Positions 1-31,411 of a DNA stretch of 32,320 nucleotides are shown one piece after another. The position numbers were made by a program, and so were the translations under genes. The notes under the pieces were generated by a model. That model was not told the origin of the DNA and ran no database searches. It saw only the letters and a program-made list of their open reading frames with translations. Position 1 is the first letter of the stretch. Each line of letters starts with the position of its first letter. The stretch covers positions 1 to 32,320 of the IMG/VR virus record IMGVR_UViG_3300027881_001080; one strand, 5' to 3'. The DNA is from a virus.

Positions 1-728
1 AAGTTAAGCTTATGCTTAAGAATAGCTGCCTGTATTGTGTCCAGCCTGAAGTTCCCTCCTAGGTTTGGATACAAAACCCCACTCTCTACTCCATGTTTCC
101 TTAAGCTCAGCAACTTGTCAGCCAGTCTCCCATCTCCTGTAACAACCATTCCTCCGTCTCCCATTCCACTGAGGTTCTTGGTAGGGAAAAAACTAAACAC
201 TCCCATATCCCCAACGGTTCCAGCACTTATCCCACCTATCTCTGTTCCAAAAGCCTGACACGCATCCTCGATCACATGCGCATCCCCAGCTATATCCATT
301 ATAGCAGCCATATCGCAGGGATATCCAAATAGATGAACCGGTATAATTGCCTTGGTTTTTTCTGTTACAAGGTTCTCCAAACACCTAACGTCCATTGTTA
401 AGAAGCCTCTTGTTATGTCACAGAATACAGGGGTGGCTCCCAATCTTAATACCACGTTTGCAGTAGCAATAAAACTGAAGTCTGGGACTATCACTTCATC
501 TCCAGGCCCTACCCCAATGGACATTAGAGCCATCAGAAGTCCATCAGTTCCCGAGCTTACACCTACTGGGTACTTTATATTCAGGTACGACTGTACGGCT
601 ATCTCGAACTCAGTAACTTCAGGGCCAAGAATGTAGTTCCCTTTGTCAATGACTGAACCAATCAATGACTTTATCTCGTCTGAAAACTTAAGCTCCTCTG
701 CTGGTTTATCTATTAACTTTATTTTCAT
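1..728 (-). CDS. DegT/DnrJ/EryC1/StrS sugar aminotransferase (partial, C-terminus outside window)
   Basis: The reading frame starts at an ATG at 728 and stays open to the window edge, giving 242 residues of the PLP-dependent DegT/StrS family, which transaminates keto groups of nucleotide sugars. Visible hallmarks are the N-terminal segment ending GNYILGPEV, the SSGTDGLLMAL cofactor-phosphate segment, HLFGYPCDM, the EDACQAFG motif, and FPTKNLSGMGDGG carrying the Schiff-base lysine. Its 5' end overlaps the stop of the upstream acetyltransferase by 4 nt. With the neighbouring dehydrogenase and N-acetyltransferase it fits a 3-amino-sugar pathway: 3-oxidation, transamination, N-acetylation, as in WbpB/WbpE/WbpD for UDP-diacetamido-glucuronate or GnnA/GnnB for UDP-GlcNAc3N. 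The exact substrate cannot be read from the sequence. Family assignment is firm. Confidence 0.93.
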   Translation of the reverse strand, partial: MKIKLIDKPAEELKFSDEIKSLIGSVIDKGNYILGPEVTEFEIAVQSYLNIKYPVGVSSGTDGLLMALMSIGVGPGDEVIVPDFSFIATANVVLRLGATPVFCDITRGFLTMDVRCLENLVTEKTKAIIPVHLFGYPCDMAAIMDIAGDAHVIEDACQAFGTEIGGISAGTVGDMGVFSFFPTKNLSGMGDGGMVVTGDGRLADKLLSLRKHGVESGVLYPNLGGNFRLDTIQAAILKHKLN

Positions 729-1318
729 TTATTCATGTCCGTATCCATACATACTACAGTCCACTGATCATCTATCACCTTGTAGGTTTTCCCAATAGGG
801 CATTTAACTAAATCATTTTTATTCTTAAATACTATACGGCTCCCTTCTTGACTCACAAACCCTACAGGTCGGGCTGGGTTCCCAAGAACCATAACATAAT
901 CCTTAACATCCCTCTCAACCAAAGATCCTGCTCCTACAAAACAATATCTACCTAATGTATTTCCACAAATAATTGTAGCCCTAGCCCCAACCGAAGCTCC
1001 CCTTTTTACCAATGTTTTCCTCATCTCTTCTTTCCTATTGATAAAAGCCCGTGGGTTAATTACGTTTGTAGTAACAACAGAAGGCCCTATAAATACATCA
1101 TCCTCTAATGTCACCCCCTTATTGAGGGAGGCATTATTTTGTATCTTTACTTTATTTCCTATAACTACGTCTTCACCAACCCAAACACCAAAAGCTATAA
1201 TACATTTCTTCCCTATCCTGGCGTTCTTTTGAATATGACAGAAATGCCATATTTTAGTACCCTCTCCAATAAAGGAAGGCTTATCCACATAAGAACTTTC
1301 ATGCACATAATAATTCAT
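725..1318 (-). CDS. Left-handed beta-helix sugar N-acetyltransferase (WbpD/WlbB-like)
   Basis: A 197-residue protein made mostly of hexapeptide repeats (IGEGTKIWHFCHI, ARIGKKCIIAFGVWVGEDVVIG, VTLEDDVFIGPSVV, LGRYCFVGAGSLV), the fold of trimeric acyl-CoA-dependent acetyltransferases. The opening WHFCHI and the NVINPRAF segment with a following RGASVGARATI stretch are typical of the WbpD/WlbB group, which acetylates the 3-amino group of a UDP-2-acetamido-3-amino sugar. It ends in the usual GNPARPVG motif plus a C-terminal extension of about 45 residues. ATG start; it overlaps both neighbours by 4 nt (ATGA), so translation is probably coupled. It would act directly after the DegT aminotransferase encoded downstream. 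Confidence 0.9.
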   Translation of the reverse strand: MNYYVHESSYVDKPSFIGEGTKIWHFCHIQKNARIGKKCIIAFGVWVGEDVVIGNKVKIQNNASLNKGVTLEDDVFIGPSVVTTNVINPRAFINRKEEMRKTLVKRGASVGARATIICGNTLGRYCFVGAGSLVERDVKDYVMVLGNPARPVGFVSQEGSRIVFKNKNDLVKCPIGKTYKVIDDQWTVVCMDTDMNK

Positions 1319-2256
1319 ACTGGTATTTCGATTCCCCCCTTTAGGTATGACTTATTTAAGGCCAGCATAACCTTTGCCGTTTGATACCCTATGTCTCTAT
1401 AAACAGGCGGAAGGTTCTTCCCGTTTACGCATTCCGTAAACTGCCTGTCTTGGGCTTCCAGAGGAGGAACAAAGGGACTATCTAGTTTTCTTCCCTTTCC
1501 CTTTGTTAAAGAAAGATAGTCATTCCCTTTTATCGAATGGCTATACTCATAAATAGAATCGGACTCGAACCTAAATGTCTTTTTAGTTCCGACCACTATA
1601 AATCGGTGCTCTTTGAATGGATGTATCCAACTCAATGATACATGGGCAGTAAACTTATTGAACATCAGATAAGAGGATGAAACATCCCTTGATAACTTCA
1701 GACATCGGAGGGATTCTGGAAATTCACCGGCAAGCATTAAAAGAATGGATATGTCGTGGGTTCCGAAACTCCACAGAACATCCTCTTGCTTCCTGACAGT
1801 CCCAAAGTTTAATCGGTTGGAATAAGCATATAATATATCACCCAACTCCCCTTCCCAATATTGATTAACGATGTGTTGTATATTGCTATGAAACAACAGT
1901 AAGTGGCCACTCATCACCACAAGCCCACTCTTCCTGGAAGCTTTCTCAATCTGGACCACATCAAACTCATTCAAGGCAATGGGCTTCTCTATTAGCACAT
2001 TCTTTCCTCTGCCCAGAAGATAGATTGCATTGTCTGCATGGCATTGGGCTGGGGTTGCAATAACCACTCCCTCTACAGATTTATCCTCTGCCAAATCCTT
2101 TATGGAACTGAATGCCTTCTCTCCATTGGTTAGTGAATTACCAAGGGTTTCCTGACAGGAATCACAAACCCCATAAAGTGACCCTATTTTCCGAAGGGTT
2201 TTGACATGGTTCTTACCCCATTTACCAGCTCCCAGAACCACTATGTTTTTCTTCAT
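1315..2256 (-). CDS. Gfo/Idh/MocA-family NAD-dependent nucleotide-sugar dehydrogenase
   Basis: A 313-residue oxidoreductase with an N-terminal Rossmann fold (VVLGAGKWGKNHV, residues 5-17) and the family's EKPIALN motif near residue 90, followed by the alpha/beta substrate domain with the WSFGTHDISILL motif that carries the catalytic-region histidine. Such enzymes oxidise the 3-hydroxyl of UDP-GlcNAc or its uronate. That would create the keto group used by the DegT aminotransferase two genes downstream. The WSFGTHDI form is closer to GnnA-type UDP-GlcNAc 3-dehydrogenases than to classical WlbA, so the final sugar could be UDP-GlcNAc3NAc rather than the uronate; this is inference. Start and stop overlap the neighbours by 4 nt. 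Confidence 0.88.
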   Translation of the reverse strand: MKKNIVVLGAGKWGKNHVKTLRKIGSLYGVCDSCQETLGNSLTNGEKAFSSIKDLAEDKSVEGVVIATPAQCHADNAIYLLGRGKNVLIEKPIALNEFDVVQIEKASRKSGLVVMSGHLLLFHSNIQHIVNQYWEGELGDILYAYSNRLNFGTVRKQEDVLWSFGTHDISILLMLAGEFPESLRCLKLSRDVSSSYLMFNKFTAHVSLSWIHPFKEHRFIVVGTKKTFRFESDSIYEYSHSIKGNDYLSLTKGKGRKLDSPFVPPLEAQDRQFTECVNGKNLPPVYRDIGYQTAKVMLALNKSYLKGGIEIPV

Positions 2257-2972
2257 ATTGTTATGGCTGGGTGAAGCCTTCTCGACTCCTTATTCATCTC
2301 GCTATCCGTTGGATTCTTAAAGGAGGCTATGCTTTTCACAAGATGATATAAGTTAAATCTCTTGGCTACTAAACGCTGGCTTATGTCTTTCCCAACCCCT
2401 GAACCTAGAGTGGGGTCTTTGCTCCATCGGGTAAGGGGAATAGGCATTACCCGATAGTCTAATTGAGCGAGCATCCTATGGGTACATATAAATGCCATGT
2501 CAGTCCATTGAGTCCAGTGATAAGGAACTCCATCAAATACAAATGCTTTTGGTTTGTGCCCTGTCCAATTTGATTTTCCGAAAGAAGACTTAAGCATTAT
2601 GTAGCTCAGACATATCTTTCCTCTGTCTGGAATCCTCTCAAAGCTCCTGATGGCAGTTGATATAAATTCTGGGCCAATAGTCAAATCATCGGCAGTATAT
2701 ACTATATAGTCAGACCCATCCCCTTTTACTTGTTTAAATGTCTTCGTAACAAGTTCCCAGTACCTTCTCTTTCCATGATTTACATGGGTGAATACTTCTA
2801 CCTTAACCTTCCCATGAACGCCTTTAAGTTTATTGGCATAGGGTTTCTGGCTTCCATCATCATTTAGCACCACCTTTATTGTGTGGTTTCCAGACTGACG
2901 ATTCAATTGCTCAACCAATCTCCTACACTGGTCTGGTCTATTGTAGGTATTTACTATAACAGATACCTTCAC
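2253..2972 (-). CDS. GT-A fold glycosyltransferase (family 2-like)
   Basis: A 239-residue protein opening MKVSVIVNTYNRPDQCRRLV, the classical start of family-2 glycosyltransferases, with a nucleotide-binding VVLNDDGS segment near residue 35 and YTADDLTIGPEF (ADD in place of DXD) around residue 95 for metal and nucleotide-sugar binding. It probably transfers one sugar to a glycan acceptor; donor and acceptor are unknown. The start is GTG and overlaps the stop of the upstream methyltransferase-like gene by 1 nt. It may use the amino sugar made by the three enzymes encoded downstream. There are no membrane segments, so it is probably cytoplasmic. Confidence 0.82.
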   Translation of the reverse strand: MKVSVIVNTYNRPDQCRRLVEQLNRQSGNHTIKVVLNDDGSQKPYANKLKGVHGKVKVEVFTHVNHGKRRYWELVTKTFKQVKGDGSDYIVYTADDLTIGPEFISTAIRSFERIPDRGKICLSYIMLKSSFGKSNWTGHKPKAFVFDGVPYHWTQWTDMAFICTHRMLAQLDYRVMPIPLTRWSKDPTLGSGVGKDISQRLVAKRFNLYHLVKSIASFKNPTDSEMNKESRRLHPAITI

Positions 2973-3463
2973 TAGAAGAATTTACGAACGTCTATCTGGT
3001 TGCTTAAAAGGGTAGTTGTCTTCGTGAAGACGGGATAAGTATATTGATACTTAAACTTATTAAAAGCCGGTTCATATCCATAGTAGTTCATCTTGTCTGT
3101 ATCATGCACAACGAATATCTCTGTACTCCCCAAGAACCTTTCTATTTCCACCACCCTTCGACTAGCTGGAGCATGGTCTATAAATACAACTGATGCCTTT
3201 TCTACAGGTACCTTATCCCAGTCCCTTACAAGATGTACCGAATGTTTTCCTTTTATGAATTGTCCTCCAAAACTCCTATACCAGGACTTGTTGCTTTCAT
3301 AGGTTTTAACTGTCCTTCCATATACTTGTGATATCACATGGAGCAATGGAGTGCTGAAGGTTCCTGCTCCCATCTCTATAATGGTTCCATCCGTCTTAAA
3401 GACTGCCATTAAGAGAGGAGCTTGGTGAGTAGAAAAGGGAGCTTTGTTTAAGATAGGGTCCAT
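2972..3463 (-). CDS. Putative SAM-dependent methyltransferase-like protein
   Basis: A 163-residue protein with features of a compact class I methyltransferase fold: IIEMGAGTFSTPLL (motif I, SAM-binding glycine loop, about residue 28), VKTYESN with an acidic residue ending strand 2, VVFIDHAP (motif for strand 4) and FVVHDTDKMNYYG. The ID-H and HDTD segments resemble small methyltransferases found in glycan clusters, but I cannot assign a substrate. It overlaps the upstream glycosyltransferase gene by 16 nt and lies inside the glycan operon, so modification of a sugar or of a surface glycan is the natural guess. Confidence 0.6.
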   Translation of the reverse strand: MDPILNKAPFSTHQAPLLMAVFKTDGTIIEMGAGTFSTPLLHVISQVYGRTVKTYESNKSWYRSFGGQFIKGKHSVHLVRDWDKVPVEKASVVFIDHAPASRRVVEIERFLGSTEIFVVHDTDKMNYYGYEPAFNKFKYQYTYPVFTKTTTLLSNQIDVRKFF

Positions 3464-4197
3464 TTCTCTACCTCCCTTAAATTACTAAATGTAGATACCC
3501 TATTTCCCATATCGAACCTAGTTCCCTTGTGGATTATTCCCCACTTACAATCCGGCTTCATAAACCGATTCACTGTAAGATGTATGGGAGCCGTCTGAAC
3601 ACCAACCACATAAGAACACGTCATTGCAAGAGTGGCTAGGTCAAGACATGTGAAGCCAAAATGCTTCCCACAGAAATACTTTGGAATGGGTTCCGTACAT
3701 GCTACCCTTAACCCCTTCGAGGCAAACTTGTCAGCCAGTTGATTGAAGTCATCAGGCTTTGAATCACACTGACTTGATTTCCCAACGCTGTTCACAATAA
3801 GAACATCAAAGAACTTATCATCGGGAGCCTCTATTTTGTTATCCTGGATTTCCTCCCAGTCAAACCATAGGTCTGCCTTGCTTCTTATGGGACAGGGAAC
3901 CTTTGCATCCCTACATACCAGTCTGTACAGGTCCATTTGACATGCCACATAATCTTCCCGTCTGAGGGGGTGGTCGAAGAATATTCTCCCCAGCCACGTG
4001 TCGATGGCTCTTCGGGGCATCCTGTCCAAGTCCTCTACTATCACCCCTCCGCAACAGAAGGATAGCTCGTAGTGATAAACGGGGGAGCAATAGTAAGTAA
4101 CATCTTCCCCTGCTTCCACTAGCTTCCTGAGAAGAAGGAGAGTGAGGAAGTGATCCCCTAAGTGCCACTTATTGTAAAAGTGTAATGGTTTAGCCAT
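3448..4197 (-). CDS. Family 9 (heptosyltransferase-like) glycosyltransferase
   Basis: A 249-residue protein resembling GT-B family 9 transferases. The N-terminus has HLGDHFLTLLLLRKL, equivalent to the GD-x(3)-T/A helix of heptosyltransferases. The C-terminal half has DVLIVNSVGKSS (in place of the usual 'I.l.pg..' nucleotide-binding segment) and LATLAMTCSYVVGVQTAPIHL, the donor-binding site where family members show D-T/S-G-x-x-H. Here Q-T-A-P-I-H keeps the histidine but not the D-S/T-G. The protein is shorter than the usual 320-350 residues. ATG start, 8-nt overlap with the upstream sulfotransferase. Role: transfer of a sugar to a surface or virion glycan. Confidence 0.6.
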   Translation of the reverse strand: MAKPLHFYNKWHLGDHFLTLLLLRKLVEAGEDVTYYCSPVYHYELSFCCGGVIVEDLDRMPRRAIDTWLGRIFFDHPLRREDYVACQMDLYRLVCRDAKVPCPIRSKADLWFDWEEIQDNKIEAPDDKFFDVLIVNSVGKSSQCDSKPDDFNQLADKFASKGLRVACTEPIPKYFCGKHFGFTCLDLATLAMTCSYVVGVQTAPIHLTVNRFMKPDCKWGIIHKGTRFDMGNRVSTFSNLREVEKWTLS

Positions 4198-14794: not shown

Positions 14795-15391
14795 TTAAAA
14801 AGCGTGTTTTGAGGTCTTTCTTCGTTCCTCAAGGTTTCTTTCGCTTAAAAGCATCTCGTATTTCCTTATCCAGTCTATTTCCTTGGGAGTATAAGTAAAT
14901 CCCTGAAACCCATTTGTGGCTGCATTCTGTATATGTTTCAAAGCCAACCAAGGAGAGGGGTTATACTCCCTATCAAGATAGTTTATATGCCCCTGAAACA
15001 GCTTCTTCCAGTTCTTAACGGCCCCTCCTTTTTTCGATAATCTTATGTCTATCCATTCCTGAAATGCTTTCTTTATGGGCTCCTGATCTAAGAAATGAGG
15101 CCATTCAAATCCTTCCGAAACGACCCTTGGAGAGATTACGCGAGTCCCAACTACTCTATAATAAGAGCCTTTCTCTGTAATACGGAATTCAATAAGATTT
15201 TTCTCCTTAAGTTTATCTCTTAAGCGGTATATCTCAAACCTATCCTTAATCATCTCCTCCTCTAACTCTTTGGTTGGGATAAGCTTCTCCCCTTCCCCAC
15301 ACTTAAATAATAAATATAGGTATAGGGGAGATAGCTTGTTCCTGTCTGCTGTTCTATTGATTCGTCCGTAAAACAATCCAATGGATTTCAT
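14795..15391 (-). CDS. DnaD/winged-helix-like replication initiation protein
   Basis: A 198-residue basic protein. Residues 15-80 look like a winged helix (LSPLYLYLLFKCG, then PTKELEEEMIKDRFEIYRLR, with a beta wing LIEFRITEKGSYYRV). The C-terminal part (AFQEWIDIRLSKKG, then WLALKHIQNAATNGFQGF) resembles the DnaD-type helical module, whose hallmark is the A-x(4)-NGWxG-like end. Paired with the DnaC-like ATPase downstream, it probably recruits the loader to the origin. Its ATG is the last three bases of the final box of the small tandem array that precedes it. Confidence 0.6.
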   Translation of the reverse strand: MKSIGLFYGRINRTADRNKLSPLYLYLLFKCGEGEKLIPTKELEEEMIKDRFEIYRLRDKLKEKNLIEFRITEKGSYYRVVGTRVISPRVVSEGFEWPHFLDQEPIKKAFQEWIDIRLSKKGGAVKNWKKLFQGHINYLDREYNPSPWLALKHIQNAATNGFQGFTYTPKEIDWIRKYEMLLSERNLEERRKTSKHAF

Positions 15392-15485
15392 TTCGCTCTA
15401 TTGTCATGGGATTTCTACCGATAAGGGCTCCCTTACTTGTAATGGGACTTCACCTCTTTGGGTCACTCGTCTCCGATGGGGGTTT
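15389..15485 (-). ncRNA. TIGR-like mini-array, three units, downstream of the tas gene
   Basis: Read on the minus strand, the gap between the tas stop and the next gene is filled by alternating boxes and spacers. Boxes: AAACCCCCA (15485-15477), AGTGACCCA (15467-15459), GAAGTCCCA (15451-15443), AGGGAGCCC (15433-15425), GAAATCCCA (15415-15407), AGCGAAATG (15397-15389). Spacers are 9 nt (one is 7). The first box follows the tas stop directly and the last ends in the ATG of the next gene. Box types, order and spacing match the 32-unit array at 30158-31290. The mini-array would be transcribed with tas. Confidence 0.85.
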
Positions 15486-16376
15486 TCATGCTGTGGATTC
15501 AAGCAGTCCAGCCTCCACCTCTTCTACTGTGAAGGGTGGTGGAATGAAATCCGTATGGTTCCCATGTGCGATTGCCCAAGGCATAGGGGGAGTTTCATTG
15601 TAGTGAATCTTATAAGCCTCGTGCCACCAGTGAGAGATAAACAACTTTGCCGCGTATCTCTGGGCTCTGGCCATAAGCTGCGCCTTTGGTAGCTTTCCCT
15701 TCATATACTCTTTATAAGCAATCGTTGTCTTCTTGTAGGTTTTCTCTCTTAGCGCTCTCTCGGCCTCCGACTTAAAATCGCCAGCATCATTCTTACTCAC
15801 CTCTTGCTTCATCCGATCCGCGTAGACCTTGCCATAGTAAGCTCCTTCCTTTTTCGAGGAGAAACAAAACGAGTGGCCTATTAAGGAAACCAGGGTCTTA
15901 AATGCTCGGCAGCAAGGGGGAGGCTTTCCCTTTTCCCATTTCTGTCCTGGCACTACACCGGCAAAGGAATAGATATGCCCTGGGTGTTTGGCTATATCCA
16001 TATCTATAAAGGCTATCAATCCGGTGGCAAATATGGGGCCTATTCCCTTATTGGCCATTGCCCACCTACCCATCTTCTTATGCTTGGCGTATTCTTCAAG
16101 TATCTTCTTCTGTTGATCCTCAAGCACCTTGTACTGAGAAAAGTGGTACTGGTTTATCCTGCATGGCTTTCCCTCTTTCAGCTTAGCCCTATACTGCTCT
16201 TCCAAAGATTTTCTATGCTTTTGAGTTTGGTAGTAGCCGCGAACTGTATCTTGTATTTCCCCCCTTCCTATACTCTTTGCAGATTCCCGAATATCCTTGT
16301 GTAGCTTTTCTACGAACTTTGGAAGTTCCGCATTTGTTAGCTTTTGTACTTTTGTTTTTGCTTCTGTTTTTCTCAT
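15486..16376 (-). CDS. tas: Tas-like protein: coiled coil plus IS110/Nop-like domain, no nuclease (TasA type)
   Basis: A basic 296-residue protein from the ATG at 16376; a TTG at 16439 would add 21 residues but would run through the upstream mini-array. Residues 15-105 are long charged helices, probably a coiled coil. Residues 110-147 (KGIGPIFATGLIAFIDMDIA, then YSFAGVVPGQKW) match the core of the IS110-family C-terminal transposase domain, which is structurally related to the Nop domain of box C/D snoRNPs. The helical remainder has HSFCF and LFISHWWHEAYKIHY. No RuvC, HNH or DEDD residues are present, so alone it should bind but not cut. Tas proteins bind 36-nt tigRNAs and target DNA through two spacers. 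Array units with matching boxes flank the gene on both sides. The family call is from pattern recognition plus context; an IS110 remnant is the alternative. Confidence 0.82.
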   Translation of the reverse strand: MRKTEAKTKVQKLTNAELPKFVEKLHKDIRESAKSIGRGEIQDTVRGYYQTQKHRKSLEEQYRAKLKEGKPCRINQYHFSQYKVLEDQQKKILEEYAKHKKMGRWAMANKGIGPIFATGLIAFIDMDIAKHPGHIYSFAGVVPGQKWEKGKPPPCCRAFKTLVSLIGHSFCFSSKKEGAYYGKVYADRMKQEVSKNDAGDFKSEAERALREKTYKKTTIAYKEYMKGKLPKAQLMARAQRYAAKLFISHWWHEAYKIHYNETPPMPWAIAHGNHTDFIPPPFTVEEVEAGLLESTA

Positions 16377-16386
16377 GGTTTTAAGT

Positions 16387-16465
16387 TGGGCGATGTGGTT
16401 ATTATGGTGTGTGGTTTCTAATGGCTCACTTTCTCCCAATGGGGTCTTGTTGTAAGTGGCTACAT
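16387..16465 (-). ncRNA. TIGR-like mini-array, about two degenerate units, between the ruvC-like gene and tas
   Basis: On the minus strand: ATGTAGCCA (16465-16457, degenerate, overlapping the upstream stop codon), 8 nt, AAGACCCCA (16448-16440), 9 nt, AGTGAGCCA (16430-16422, exact to the box-2 consensus), 8 nt, CACACACCA (16413-16405), 9 nt, CATCGCCCA (16395-16387, degenerate). The central unit is convincing; the outer boxes are recognised mainly by their exact 17-18 nt spacing. The stretch lies just ahead of the tas ATG and in the same orientation. Confidence 0.75.
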
Positions 16466-16948
16466 ATTATGGAAGTGGTGTGCGATAAGGAGGCCGTCTG
16501 CATCCTTATGCTTCATTATAAATTCGGTATGTTTAGGGTAAAGTTCCATCCCTTTAAGGCGACTTGCTTTCTTTAACTCGGGTCCTTTAAAGCCAGGTAT
16601 CAACGATCGCTGCCAAGTTCCTGAATCGACTGTCTCGTATCCTATACTCAGCATCTCAAGGCATTGCCGAGTAGCCAGGTAACAGGACATTCCTGACATA
16701 CTGGAGTTAAAGAACTTTGGGTTTACAAAGGGTCTCTCTATAAATGCTCTTGGATTTCCAGCGCCCTCGGTGAAGGCCCGTATCTCCTGGGATAGCTCAT
16801 GCCAGTCTAGCATCCTGAGCATCTTCTTAGACTTAGTATAGTGAAGGGCCTCCTTTACTGGGGTTGGAAAGAATACGCTATCTTCATCAGATATAATTGC
16901 TACAGCCCCGGTGGTCCCGTTATCTATCCCTATAGTTACCTTGGCCAT
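16460..16948 (-). CDS. RuvC-like RNase H-fold nuclease (phage Holliday junction resolvase type)
   Basis: A 162-residue protein with the RuvC active-site pattern: D9 in TIGIDNGTTGAVAI, E71 in AFIERPF, and D149/D151 in HKDADGLLIAHH. The size fits phage RuvC-like resolvases, which cut branched DNA during recombination and before packaging. That is its safest role. It lies directly upstream of the Tas-like gene in the same operon. In IS110 transposases an RNase H-fold domain precedes a coiled coil and the C-terminal domain in one chain, so these two genes have the order of a split version; nuclease supply in trans to Tas is possible but inferred. ATG start; overlaps the upstream gene by 13 nt. 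Confidence 0.8.
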   Translation of the reverse strand: MAKVTIGIDNGTTGAVAIISDEDSVFFPTPVKEALHYTKSKKMLRMLDWHELSQEIRAFTEGAGNPRAFIERPFVNPKFFNSSMSGMSCYLATRQCLEMLSIGYETVDSGTWQRSLIPGFKGPELKKASRLKGMELYPKHTEFIMKHKDADGLLIAHHFHNM

Positions 16949-18190: not shown

Positions 18191-19381
18191 TTAGTGTTGT
18201 TGCGCGGATTCTCCGTGCAGTGTTTCGTCTGTGCCTTTTTCCTGAACTGTAGAGCATATCTTAATGTCCCTGAAGATCAGTTTGGCCAGGTAGAAACATG
18301 CTACGGTAACGAGTGAACACCAGACGATTGATGTACCGACGCCTACCACTTGTTTTCCAAGCTGGGAAATCCAATTATCGAAAGCAAAGGCTGTCATAAG
18401 CCCTCCAATGATACCACCGGCCAAGTGAGCAGGTATAACGTCTACCGTATCATCCAAATCAAGTATATCGTTAAACAGGTGCATTAAGCCCCAGGCTCCT
18501 ACCGAACAAGCTGCTCCGATTCCTATTGCTAAAGGAACTCCAGCTACACCGGCTGCTGGGGTTATTCCAGCTAAGGCTCCTACGGCTGCGGTAGCAACTC
18601 CTATAACGGAAGTCTTTTGACGAGCTATAAGATTCACTATCACCCATGTAACCATTCCTGCGGCGGCTGCTACAAGAGATACAAACAATGCCATTCCAGC
18701 TTTTCCATTGGCGGCCAATACTGATACCGCATTAAAGAAAGGCCATCCCACTATAAGGAGTCCTATGCCTATAAGGGCTTGTGAGTTGTTCCACGCGTAC
18801 ACATCTCTATGTTTTAGTCTGCGGCCAGCAAAGAACAAGCCTACTGCACAAAGGATGCCTGAAGGTATGTGAACTACATTCCCTCCTGCAAGGTCTTCCA
18901 CTCCTAGCTTAAGAAGAAACCCGTTATCTGCCCAGGACATATATGCTATTGGGCAATAGGAAAACGTAAGCCACAGTAAGGTAATAAAGGCTAAGGGAAG
19001 GAGCTTAATCCTACCCAGGATGCCTCCGAACCCAATTACAGGGGTAATTACAGCAAAGGTAAGTTGAAATCCGGCTATCAGTATCTCCGGAATTCCGTCT
19101 TCAGTTACACTCCCTTTTAGGTTTCCAAGGAATAGGTTACTGAAGTTACCGAAGAACTTCCCGACCCCGTTAAAGGCAAAGTTGTACCCGTATATTCCCC
19201 ACATAAGGATCGCTATGGCTGAGATCACCAACCCGTTACACCATGTATTCATGGCTTCTGACTTCTTACAAAGCCCGCTATTCAGGACAATTACGCCCAC
19301 TATCATCAACGTCACCATTCCTATACCCAGGGCAAGGAATGTGGAATTTCCTGAATCAATCAGGGATTTTACTTCTGGCAT
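18191..19381 (-). CDS. amt: Ammonium transporter (Amt/MEP/Rh family)
   Basis: A 396-residue polytopic membrane protein of near-full family length with about 11 hydrophobic segments. Signature residues are present: FQLTFAVITP (the Phe-gate region), SYCPIAYMSW, EDLAGGNVVHIPSG with D163 and the first pore histidine H171, GWPFFNAVS, and DDTVDVIPAHLAGGIIGG with the second pore histidine H319. The twin-His pore is therefore intact and transport of NH4+/NH3 across the inner membrane is expected. The tail is short and lacks an obvious domain fusion; no glnK-type gene is nearby. It lies 1 nt after the upstream small gene. As a phage-borne gene it is probably an auxiliary metabolic gene for nitrogen uptake. 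Confidence 0.95.
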   Translation of the reverse strand: MPEVKSLIDSGNSTFLALGIGMVTLMIVGVIVLNSGLCKKSEAMNTWCNGLVISAIAILMWGIYGYNFAFNGVGKFFGNFSNLFLGNLKGSVTEDGIPEILIAGFQLTFAVITPVIGFGGILGRIKLLPLAFITLLWLTFSYCPIAYMSWADNGFLLKLGVEDLAGGNVVHIPSGILCAVGLFFAGRRLKHRDVYAWNNSQALIGIGLLIVGWPFFNAVSVLAANGKAGMALFVSLVAAAAGMVTWVIVNLIARQKTSVIGVATAAVGALAGITPAAGVAGVPLAIGIGAACSVGAWGLMHLFNDILDLDDTVDVIPAHLAGGIIGGLMTAFAFDNWISQLGKQVVGVGTSIVWCSLVTVACFYLAKLIFRDIKICSTVQEKGTDETLHGESAQQH

Positions 19382-30069: not shown

Positions 30070-30108
30070 GCCCCTGGGTTTGTCTTTTGGCCCAGGGGCT
30101 TTCCTCTT
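30070..30108 (+). terminator. Strong terminator just before the array promoter
   Basis: GCCCCTGGG (30070-30078) pairs perfectly with CCCAGGGGC (30091-30099), 12-nt loop, followed by TTTCCTCTT. It isolates the array from upstream transcription. Confidence 0.75.
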
Positions 30109-30142
30109 GACAGGGTGTTAAGTTTTTCCGTAAATTCTTAAC
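30107..30142 (+). promoter_or_regulatory. Promoter and inverted repeat driving the large array
   Basis: TTGACA (30107-30112), 18 nt, TAAATT (30131-30136); the expected transcript start near 30143-30145 is about 14 nt before the first box. GTTAAG (30117-30122) and CTTAAC (30137-30142) form an inverted repeat over the promoter, with the same TTAAG half-site as at the 17980 promoter. It indicates rightward transcription of the array. Confidence 0.6.
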
Positions 30143-30157
30143 TTAACCATAACAAGA

Positions 30158-31290
30158 AATACCCCATCTTTTTTCTTAGTGACTCATCTAAAGAGGATAC
30201 CCCACTAACCGATAAAGGATTCAAATGTCAAAGACACCCCATAAATAGAGAAAGAACCAAGCTCGTTAATACCCCACAACGTGGAAGTGAACCAAATGAC
30301 TCTATTACTCACCGGATCAAAGTGAACCAAAAATTACAGATTCACCAATAGTAAGGAGTGAGCCCAGACCCAAGATTCCCCACCATAACCAGAGCGATCC
30401 AATAAATCGTGATTCCCCAAAACCAATAAGAGACCCAGAAAACCATAATACCACATAACCATTGAGGGAGTCATTTATGATAATACCCCACATTACGCGA
30501 ACGAGTCAATTAGACTAAATCCCTACAGTAAACAAACGAACCATGAATTGCCATTCCCCACAACGGATAAGTGACTCAAATTGTACAAAACCCCACAGCA
30601 TAAGAAGGACTCACTCCACTTAATACCCCACTACACCAGAAGGAGCCATTAGAGGAAAAACCCCCACATTGAAGAAGCGAACCAAGCGAATCAAAAACCC
30701 ATAATGCCCAAGTGATCCAAGGCATCTGAAACCCCACATTGAACTAGAGATTCAACGACATCAATACCCCAAATCAAATAAAAGATTCACCATACCCTAT
30801 TCCCCATTGACGATCTAAAGAACCAGCATGTGAAATCCCCCATATCGTCTCAGTGACTCAATTCCAGATCATACCCCAATGGGAGCGAAGGAGTCATAAA
30901 ACAAGTTACACCAAAAATACAAAACGAATTAGGGCATCAGAAACCCCACATCATGCGAATGACCCACAATGGATCAAACCCCAAACTAAATAAAGGGAGC
31001 CATCATAATTTAAATCCCCAAAGTTTGAAGAGCGACCCAGCTATCCGCAATTCCCCATACAAGTAGAGGGAGCCACATTAAAGGAACATACCAAAATCCC
31101 TGAGCGATCCAGGTAAAACCGAATCCCCATAATATTTAAGAGACCCACCAATAGAAAATACCCCAACTCAATACAGGGAGCCAAAATACGCTAAATCCCC
31201 ATCATTTCCATAGCGACCCCAAATGTTTAAACCCCCAACGGAGACTAGGGAGCCAAATAAACCAATCCCCCAATGTATGTAAGCGACCTG
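30158..31290 (+). ncRNA. TIGR-like tandem guide-RNA array, 32 units of about 36 nt
   Basis: A non-coding 1.13-kb array. Each unit is box 1 (consensus RAWWCCCCA), a spacer, box 2 (consensus ARNGANYCA) and a spacer. CCCC starts are found at 30162, 30200, 30237, 30272 and so on to 31267: 32 box-1 positions, 31 intervals, mean 35.6 nt (range 34-38). Twenty-five of the 32 keep CCCC. Spacers are mostly 9 nt (range about 7-11), and I saw no repeated spacer. Weak boxes lie at about 30304, 30905 and 31087. The boxes drift, yet the phase is kept. This fits TIGR arrays, which are processed to 36-nt tigRNAs with two roughly 9-nt spacers. The R-N-G-A-N core of box 2 recalls box C (RUGAUGA). It is too short in repeat and too regular for CRISPR, and indels exclude a coding repeat. 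The same boxes flank the tas gene. Confidence 0.9.
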
Positions 31291-31291
31291 C

Positions 31292-31411
31292 CTACTTCTT
31301 CCCGGTCTTCAATGGCTCTTTCTGCCACCGGGGGGGTATACAAGCTATCTTGGTAGGCTTGGGTTGGGATACGTAGTTGTCCTGACTCTTGATGTTACTC
31401 TTCTTGCTCAT
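31292..31411 (-). CDS. Lys/Pro-rich micro-protein at the array end
   Basis: A 39-residue ATG-started frame on the strand opposite the array (SKKSNIKSQDNYVSQPKP, then CIPPRWQKEPLKTGKK). Its stop lies 1 nt beyond the last array box. Composition resembles the basic micro-protein at 18018. If transcribed, its message would run into the array antisense strand. No family; moderate support only. Confidence 0.4.
   Translation of the reverse strand: MSKKSNIKSQDNYVSQPKPTKIACIPPRWQKEPLKTGKK

What the first reader, a model, noticed from the sequence alone, without database searches (positions are those of the whole stretch)
30158..31290. A 32-unit two-box tandem array with a 36-nt period: a TIGR guide-RNA array
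Seen directly: CCCCA-type boxes recur 32 times at a mean of 35.6 nt. Midway between them is a second box (ARNGANYCA), and the roughly 9-nt segments between boxes are non-repeating. Known: TIGR-Tas systems (Faure and colleagues, 2025) have arrays processed to 36-nt tigRNAs with two spacers of about 9 nt, used by Nop-domain Tas proteins, and were found in phages. Inference: this is such an array with about 64 spacers. Box drift with fixed phase suggests selection on the boxes as RNA motifs.
Basis: partly seen in the sequence, partly recalled or inferred. Interest (0 to 1): 0.97.

Follow-up and report, generated by a model that had tools for sequence, protein, structure and literature searches.

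The report
Phage RNA-guide array with TasA protein
This phage fragment carries a long array of short paired guide sequences plus the matching guide-binding protein gene 14 kb away, a new member of the recently described TIGR-Tas family of RNA-guided DNA-binding systems whose natural role is still unknown.

Summary
The array at 30159-31290 (+) has 32 units, mean period 35.7 nt: edge box AWNCCCCA, 9-10 nt spacer, loop box ARNGANYCA, 9-10 nt spacer. All 63 complete spacers differ. A strict unit pattern occurs 21 times against 0.004 in shuffles. At 15486-16376 (-) lies a 296-aa Nop-domain protein, flanked on both sides by further units with the same boxes. Its family profile hits solved TasR (E 3.7e-27) and TasH (2.3e-19), and its AlphaFold model (pLDDT 84) matches TasH/TasR best (Z 18.1/15.8, then IS110 12). 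It has no nuclease domain, so it is TasA-type. A scan with the box motif alone recovered another phage with a Nop gene between such arrays, and a family scan found 176 viral relatives. The layout is a minority one: the main array lies 14 kb from tasA on the other strand; 3 of 33 surveyed relatives also have a distant array. Natural targets were not found. A small excess of self-genome matches (3 vs 0.15 expected, p 0.0016) did not replicate across 33 related phages. RNA processing and function were not tested.

The parts
30159..31290 (+). Main TIGR array: 32 units of edge repeat (AWNCCCCA, 8 nt), spacer A (9-10 nt), loop repeat (ARNGANYCA, 9 nt), spacer B (9-10 nt)
30107..30136 (+). Promoter-like site TTGACA-N18-TAAATT, 22 nt before the first edge repeat; candidate promoter of the array
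   Evidence: 10 of 12 consensus matches; consensus match only
30070..30099 (+). Intrinsic terminator-like hairpin closing the upstream gene, so the array looks like its own transcription unit
15486..16376 (-). tasA: solo Nop-domain protein, 296 aa (ATG at 16376; an upstream TTG at 16439 lies inside a TIGR unit and is unlikely to be the start)
16405..16447 (-). Satellite TIGR unit just 5' of tasA: edge AGACCCCA, TTGGGAGAA, loop AGTGAGCCA, TTAGAAACC, degenerate edge ACACACCA
15391..15484 (-). Satellite mini array just 3' of tasA: about 2.5 units (AACCCCCA / AGTGACCCA / AAGTCCCA / AGGGAGCCC / AAATCCCA / truncated AGCGAA running into the ATG of the next gene)

Best explanation
It is a TIGR-TasA system of a tailed phage. 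The array is transcribed on the + strand from a promoter at about 30107-30136 into a long A/C-rich precursor. Dimeric TasA, made from the replication-gene region on the other strand, binds the pseudosymmetric edge and loop boxes, and a host RNase cuts the precursor into tigRNAs of about 36 nt, each with two 9-nt spacers. The TasA-tigRNA complex then binds double-stranded DNA with spacer A on one strand and spacer B on the other, and, lacking a nuclease, acts by blocking or bending its target rather than cutting it. The most likely targets are other mobile elements competing for the same host. Shown here: the array, the gene, their shared boxes, family and fold. Inferred from the published TasR/TasH/TasA work: transcription, processing, tandem-spacer DNA binding. 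Guessed: the biological target.
For: Unit anatomy equals the published TIGR definition: alternating 8-12 nt repeats, 9-nt spacers, 36-nt unit (PMC12045711). The same boxes flank the Nop gene in this contig. The A4 profile hits PDB TasR 9mty at 3.7e-27, TasH 21kl at 2.3e-19, IS621 at 1.9e-4. AlphaFold model pLDDT 84: Foldseek ranks 1-11 are all TasH/TasR, VIA-align Z 18.1 TasH, 15.8 TasR, 12.2 ISCro4, 11.7 IS621, next 7.5. A box-motif scan of IMG/VR recovered a phage whose Nop gene lies between such arrays. Relatives in Halomonas sp. NO4, Acidobacteriaceae KBS 96, Ca. Propionivibrio and Microcystis phage Mvi-JY20 all have adjacent arrays. 33 of 36 surveyed TasA phage contigs have an array called within about 3.5 kb of tasA; a 34th (G012) has an adjacent 35-nt array seen by eye. 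Across 1498 repeat elements, positions 3 and 8 keep pairing through G-C, A-T and T-A (86% paired, 75% in within-array shuffles, z 16).
Against: No RNA or binding data. The main array is 14 kb from tasA and on the opposite strand. The edge box of this array does not keep the 3-8 pair (T-C 17, A-C 11 of 32), and the loop pair is not significantly covarying within the array (p 0.25). No clear intrinsic terminator follows the array. No convincing targets were found.
Confidence: 0.93

Rival explanations
1. The array is a set of DNA binding sites (iterons or ParB-like sites) for a replication or segregation protein, and no small RNA is made.
For: A regular phased array of two short boxes in a phage is also what iterons look like; Faure et al. 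mention TasA loci in operon with ParB-like genes (PMC12045711).
Against: The spacers are held at 9-10 nt yet none is repeated; the same boxes flank a Nop gene here and in many relatives; box positions 3 and 8 change in a compensatory way across relatives, which a duplex DNA site does not need.
Confidence: 0.03
2. The main array has lost its partner and is a relic: tasA at 15 kb serves only its own flanking mini arrays and the 32-unit array is decaying.
For: The main array is remote and several of its boxes are degenerate (CACCA, CCACA, ATACC).
Against: Boxes keep 1.5-1.8 bits per core position over 32 units, which neutral decay would erase; the flanking units and the main array share the same boxes; G018, G020 and G029 also have large well-kept distant arrays.
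Confidence: 0.1
3. The guides act on the phage's own genome, as a regulator or as a remnant of relatives' sequences, rather than on foreign elements.
For: In the published geometry (A followed by reverse complement of B, gap 0-2) 3 self matches with at most 2 mismatches of 18 against 0.15 expected from mispaired spacers, p 0.0016; none in three control geometries.
Against: No such excess in 33 related phages with about 1600 spacer pairs; none of the matches is perfect; the best one was not found in any other viral contig.
Confidence: 0.12

Closest known systems
TIGR-TasA systems (Faure et al. 2025, Science, PMC12045711), e.g. Flavonifractor plautii FpTIGR
   Same: Solo Nop-domain Tas, dual alternating repeats, 9-nt spacers, about 36-nt unit, found in phages, array units flanking the tas gene.
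   Different: Main array 14 kb away on the other strand; 32 units against the 5-15 given as most common; edge box AWNCCCCA lacks the box D/box C pair; boxes more degenerate.
TasR (PDB 9mty) and TasH (PDB 21kl, 9w04)
   Same: Nop and coiled-coil fold, profile E 3.7e-27 and 2.3e-19, Z 15.8 and 18.1.
   Different: No N-terminal RuvC or HNH nuclease in this 296-aa protein.
TasA loci found here: Microcystis phage Mvi-JY20 (PP438412.1), IMGVR_UViG_3300036768_001410, IMGVR_UViG_3300021090_000071
   Same: TasA with dual-repeat arrays of the same kind; the last is the sister in the tree (98/98 support).
   Different: Arrays immediately beside tasA; in the first two the repeats are ACGAAACCCA/ATGCGAGCCA and GAGAACCCCA/GAGCGAGCCA.
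IS110 family recombinases (IS621, ISCro4) with bridge RNA
   Same: Shared Nop-type RNA-binding domain (Z about 12).
   Different: No DEDD/RuvC catalytic domain, and an array instead of a single bridge RNA.

Membership tests
TIGR-Tas, dual-repeat type | Two distinct alternating 8-12 nt repeats separated by about 9-nt spacers, 36-nt unit | tested here: met
   8-nt edge, 9-nt loop, 9-10 nt spacers, mean unit 35.7 nt, 32 units
TIGR-Tas, dual-repeat type | Non-repeating spacers | tested here: met
   63 of 63 distinct
TIGR-Tas, dual-repeat type | Nop-domain Tas protein in the locus | tested here: met
   15486-16376 (-); profile hit to TasR 3.7e-27, TasH 2.3e-19; fold Z 18.1 and 15.8
[quoted passage not shown]
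   Met by satellite units on both sides of tasA with the same boxes; the large array is 14 kb away
TIGR-Tas, dual-repeat type | Box C/box D motifs that pair and covary in edge and loop repeats | tested here: inconclusive
   Family wide: positions 3 and 8 covary, z 16. In this array: 26 of 32 loops pair but covariation p 0.25; edge boxes mostly do not pair
TIGR-Tas, dual-repeat type | Rho-independent terminator after the array (typical, not obligatory) | tested here: inconclusive
   No strong terminator-like site between 31290 and 31496; one weak match at 31361-31388
TIGR-Tas, dual-repeat type | Processing into 36-nt tigRNAs and tandem-spacer DNA binding | not testable with these tools
   Needs small-RNA sequencing and binding assays
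TasR or TasH subtype | N-terminal RuvC or HNH nuclease fused to the Nop domain | tested here: not met
   296 aa; only the coiled-coil and Nop region aligns (model 35-285 to TasH 65-309, TasR 111-322); no nuclease family hit
CRISPR array | One repeat of 25-36 nt alternating with spacers of similar size, with cas genes | tested here: not met
   Two boxes of 8-9 nt with 9-10 nt spacers; no cas gene hit among the window proteins scanned (not every ORF was scanned)
IS110 transposon | DEDD/RuvC catalytic domain plus Transposase_20 domain and a bridge RNA | tested here: not met
   Only a sub-threshold Transposase_20 match (18.6 of 21.3 bits); no catalytic N-terminal domain

The most novel reading that the evidence does not exclude
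The array guides TasA to sequences shared by this phage and its close relatives, so that the phage binds (and represses or bends) homologous sites in competing sibling phages while tolerating mismatched versions in its own genome. This would be the first natural target set for a TIGR-TasA system.
Probability: 0.1. Interest if true: 0.8.

Novelty: new member of a known kind. Interest (0 to 1): 0.42.

Why it matters
TIGR-Tas was described only in 2025 and its natural role, spacer origin and targets are open. This case adds a phage TasA system with a large array placed far from the protein gene, linked to it by shared boxes. The survey made on the way gives three things. Remote arrays recur (3 of 33 relatives), so a tas gene and its array need not be neighbours and searches by neighbourhood will miss some. 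Box positions 3 and 8 covary across 1498 repeats, which is independent comparative support for an RNA role. An isolated cyanophage in GenBank (Mvi-JY20) carries an unannotated complete system, the kind of cultured model in which targets could be measured. The pooled negative self-target test also argues against self-targeting as the general function of TasA arrays.

Tried and rejected
Self-targeting: significant in the window alone but not in 33 relatives, so not claimed. Cross-targeting among 37 phage genomes: no excess in the published geometry. Pattern for the best self match in all IMG/VR: no hit. A RuvC-like resolvase gene sits just upstream of tasA (16460-16948), which suggested a split TasR; of 39 TasA contigs searched only this one has it, so rejected as a functional pair. 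Single-sequence scans for relatives failed; a nine-member alignment succeeded. The first structure job with two sequences gave pLDDT 39 and was discarded. Best-scoring relatives G006/G007 show no array near tasA; their weak 36-nt periodicity is low-complexity sequence. CRISPR, iteron and IS110 readings were rejected for the reasons given under membership and rivals. L010 and L012 from the motif scan carry single short matches only.

Full report
What was checked. The window is a complete IMG/VR virus record of 32,320 bases, classed linear and probably a fragment. The array claim was re-derived by hand and by script. There are 32 edge boxes and 32 loop boxes between 30159 and 31290 on the + strand, mean unit 35.68 nt. 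Information is concentrated in edge A-W-N-C-C-C-C-A and loop A-R-N-G-A-N-Y-C-A; the intervals are 9 nt (42 of 63) or 10 nt (18 of 63) and near random in sequence. The array is 40% A and 28% C. A strict unit pattern gives 21 hits in the array, against 0.004 expected from dinucleotide shuffles.

The partner gene. The ORF at 15486-16439 (-) matches PHROG 4285 'transposase' at 5e-27 and the Pfam IS110 Transposase_20 model weakly. A single-sequence search of the PDB hits TasR 9mty at 2.7e-9. When the unit pattern was run over the whole record, the only perfect hit outside the array was at 15459-15484 on the minus strand, directly after this gene. A one-mismatch unit lies at 16422-16447 directly before it and a two-mismatch unit at 15425-15450. 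Reading the sequence shows a 5' unit and about 2.5 units 3' of the gene, the last running as AGCGAAATG into the start of the next gene. The true start is therefore probably the ATG at 16376 (296 aa). These satellites tie the remote array to the Nop gene by sequence.

Independent confirmation. A motif-only scan of IMG/VR with the box pattern returned four contigs. In one (IMGVR_UViG_3300036768_001410) the arrays flank a PHROG 4285 gene on both sides; another (IMGVR_UViG_3300006050_000027) has a 15-element array just before a large ORF, but no Nop gene on a 13.6 kb fragment. Alignment-based scans then found relatives in bacterial genomes, such as Halomonas sp. NO4 at 41% and Acidobacteriaceae KBS 96 at 40%, and 176 in viral contigs. 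The cultured Microcystis phage Mvi-JY20 has a TasA annotated as hypothetical with a nine-unit array and terminator right behind it. A profile of nine members hits TasR 3.7e-27, TasH 2.3e-19, IS621 1.9e-4. The AlphaFold model (pLDDT 84) finds TasH and TasR as the eleven best Foldseek matches, with VIA-align Z 18.1 and 15.8, IS110 recombinases at about 12, and unrelated helical proteins at 7.5 or less. Only the coiled-coil and Nop region aligns, so this is a nuclease-free TasA.

Comparative anatomy. In 36 TasA phage contigs, 33 have arrays called within about 3.5 kb of tasA, with 13 to about 100 repeat elements; a further one (G012) has an adjacent array of 35-nt period that the caller missed. 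Typical repeats are GAGAGAACCA (edge) and GAGCGAGCCA (loop). Whole-contig scans of those 33 found a further distant array in three: G018 about 7 kb away on the other strand, G029 about 19 kb away on the other strand, G020 about 9 kb away. The window belongs to this minority layout. Its tree sister is L108 (98/98 support), though the window's branch is long. Over 1498 repeat elements, positions 3 and 8 of the ten-base repeat stay complementary while changing between G-C, A-T and T-A (86% paired against 75% after shuffling within arrays, z 16). Part of this comes from edge and loop repeats using different pairs, and related arrays are not independent, so z overstates the evidence. It agrees with the box C/box D pairing reported for TasR (PMC12045711). 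In the window the loop boxes follow a weak version of this (26 of 32 paired, p 0.25) and the edge boxes do not.

Targets. The published rule is spacer A on one strand and spacer B on the other, contiguous or with a 1-2 bp gap, giving 8-nt 3' overhangs when cut (PMC12045711 section 7). From that I inferred the order: target sense strand equals A followed by the reverse complement of B. In this order the window's own genome holds 3 sites with at most 2 mismatches of 18 at gaps 0-2 (units 10, 22, 30 at 2445, 3181, 10351), against 0.15 from mispaired spacers (p 0.0016 by shuffling pairs). Gaps 0-3 give 5 against 0.24; three other geometries give none. The mismatch threshold was chosen after seeing the data. 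The same kind of test pooled over 33 phages and about 1600 pairs shows no excess, nor do cross-matches among 37 genomes, and the unit 10 site is in no other viral contig. I therefore record the self matches as a lead only.

Mechanism. Shown: array, partner gene, shared boxes, family and fold. Inferred from the published relatives: transcription of the + strand from the promoter-like site at 30107-30136, TasA-dependent maturation into 36-nt tigRNAs by a host RNase, dimeric TasA with pseudosymmetric boxes, tandem-spacer binding of both DNA strands, and a non-cleaving effect such as blocking or bending. Guessed: competition with other mobile elements as the purpose.

Verdict. It is a new member of a known kind, with an uncommon split layout.

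Noticed in passing
window 18191-19381 (-): Phage-borne ammonium transporter (Pfam PF00909, E 1.5e-63; PHROG 33847), a likely auxiliary metabolic gene.
   Followed up: no
window 16460-16948 (-): RuvC-like Holliday junction resolvase (PHROG 1770, 3e-12) directly upstream of tasA and its 5' satellite unit; not found in 38 other TasA contigs.
   Followed up: yes
window 3-2972 (-): Sugar cassette: DegT aminotransferase, hexapeptide acyltransferase, GFO/IDH/MocA oxidoreductase, glycosyltransferase.
   Followed up: no
L024:2446-3171 and about 3186-3500 (Microcystis phage Mvi-JY20, PP438412.1): An isolated cyanophage in GenBank carries an unannotated TasA (XAI95461.1, 'hypothetical protein') and a nine-unit TIGR array with terminator.
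   Followed up: partly
L163:467-1592 (G018), L193:1286-2106 (G029), G020 record about 39642-40063: Large TIGR arrays 7-19 kb from tasA, two of them on the opposite strand, in other TasA phages.
   Followed up: partly
window 15391-15400 (-); G029 and G018 distant arrays; L011:416-431: Arrays end in a truncated loop repeat (GAGCGAAATGA, GAGCGATGA, GAGTGAAACACCAATG) that abuts or overlaps an ATG, apparently the start codon of the next gene, which may couple array processing to translation of that gene.
   Followed up: no
G006/G007 (IMGVR_UViG_3300030102_001767, IMGVR_UViG_3300012920_000070): AT-rich phages with a TasA at 40% identity but no array recognisable near the gene.
   Followed up: partly
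L017:6273-7256 (P0002), about residues 206-226: TasA of this phage carries an inserted CxxC...CxxC zinc-ribbon-like segment in the Nop domain region.
   Followed up: no
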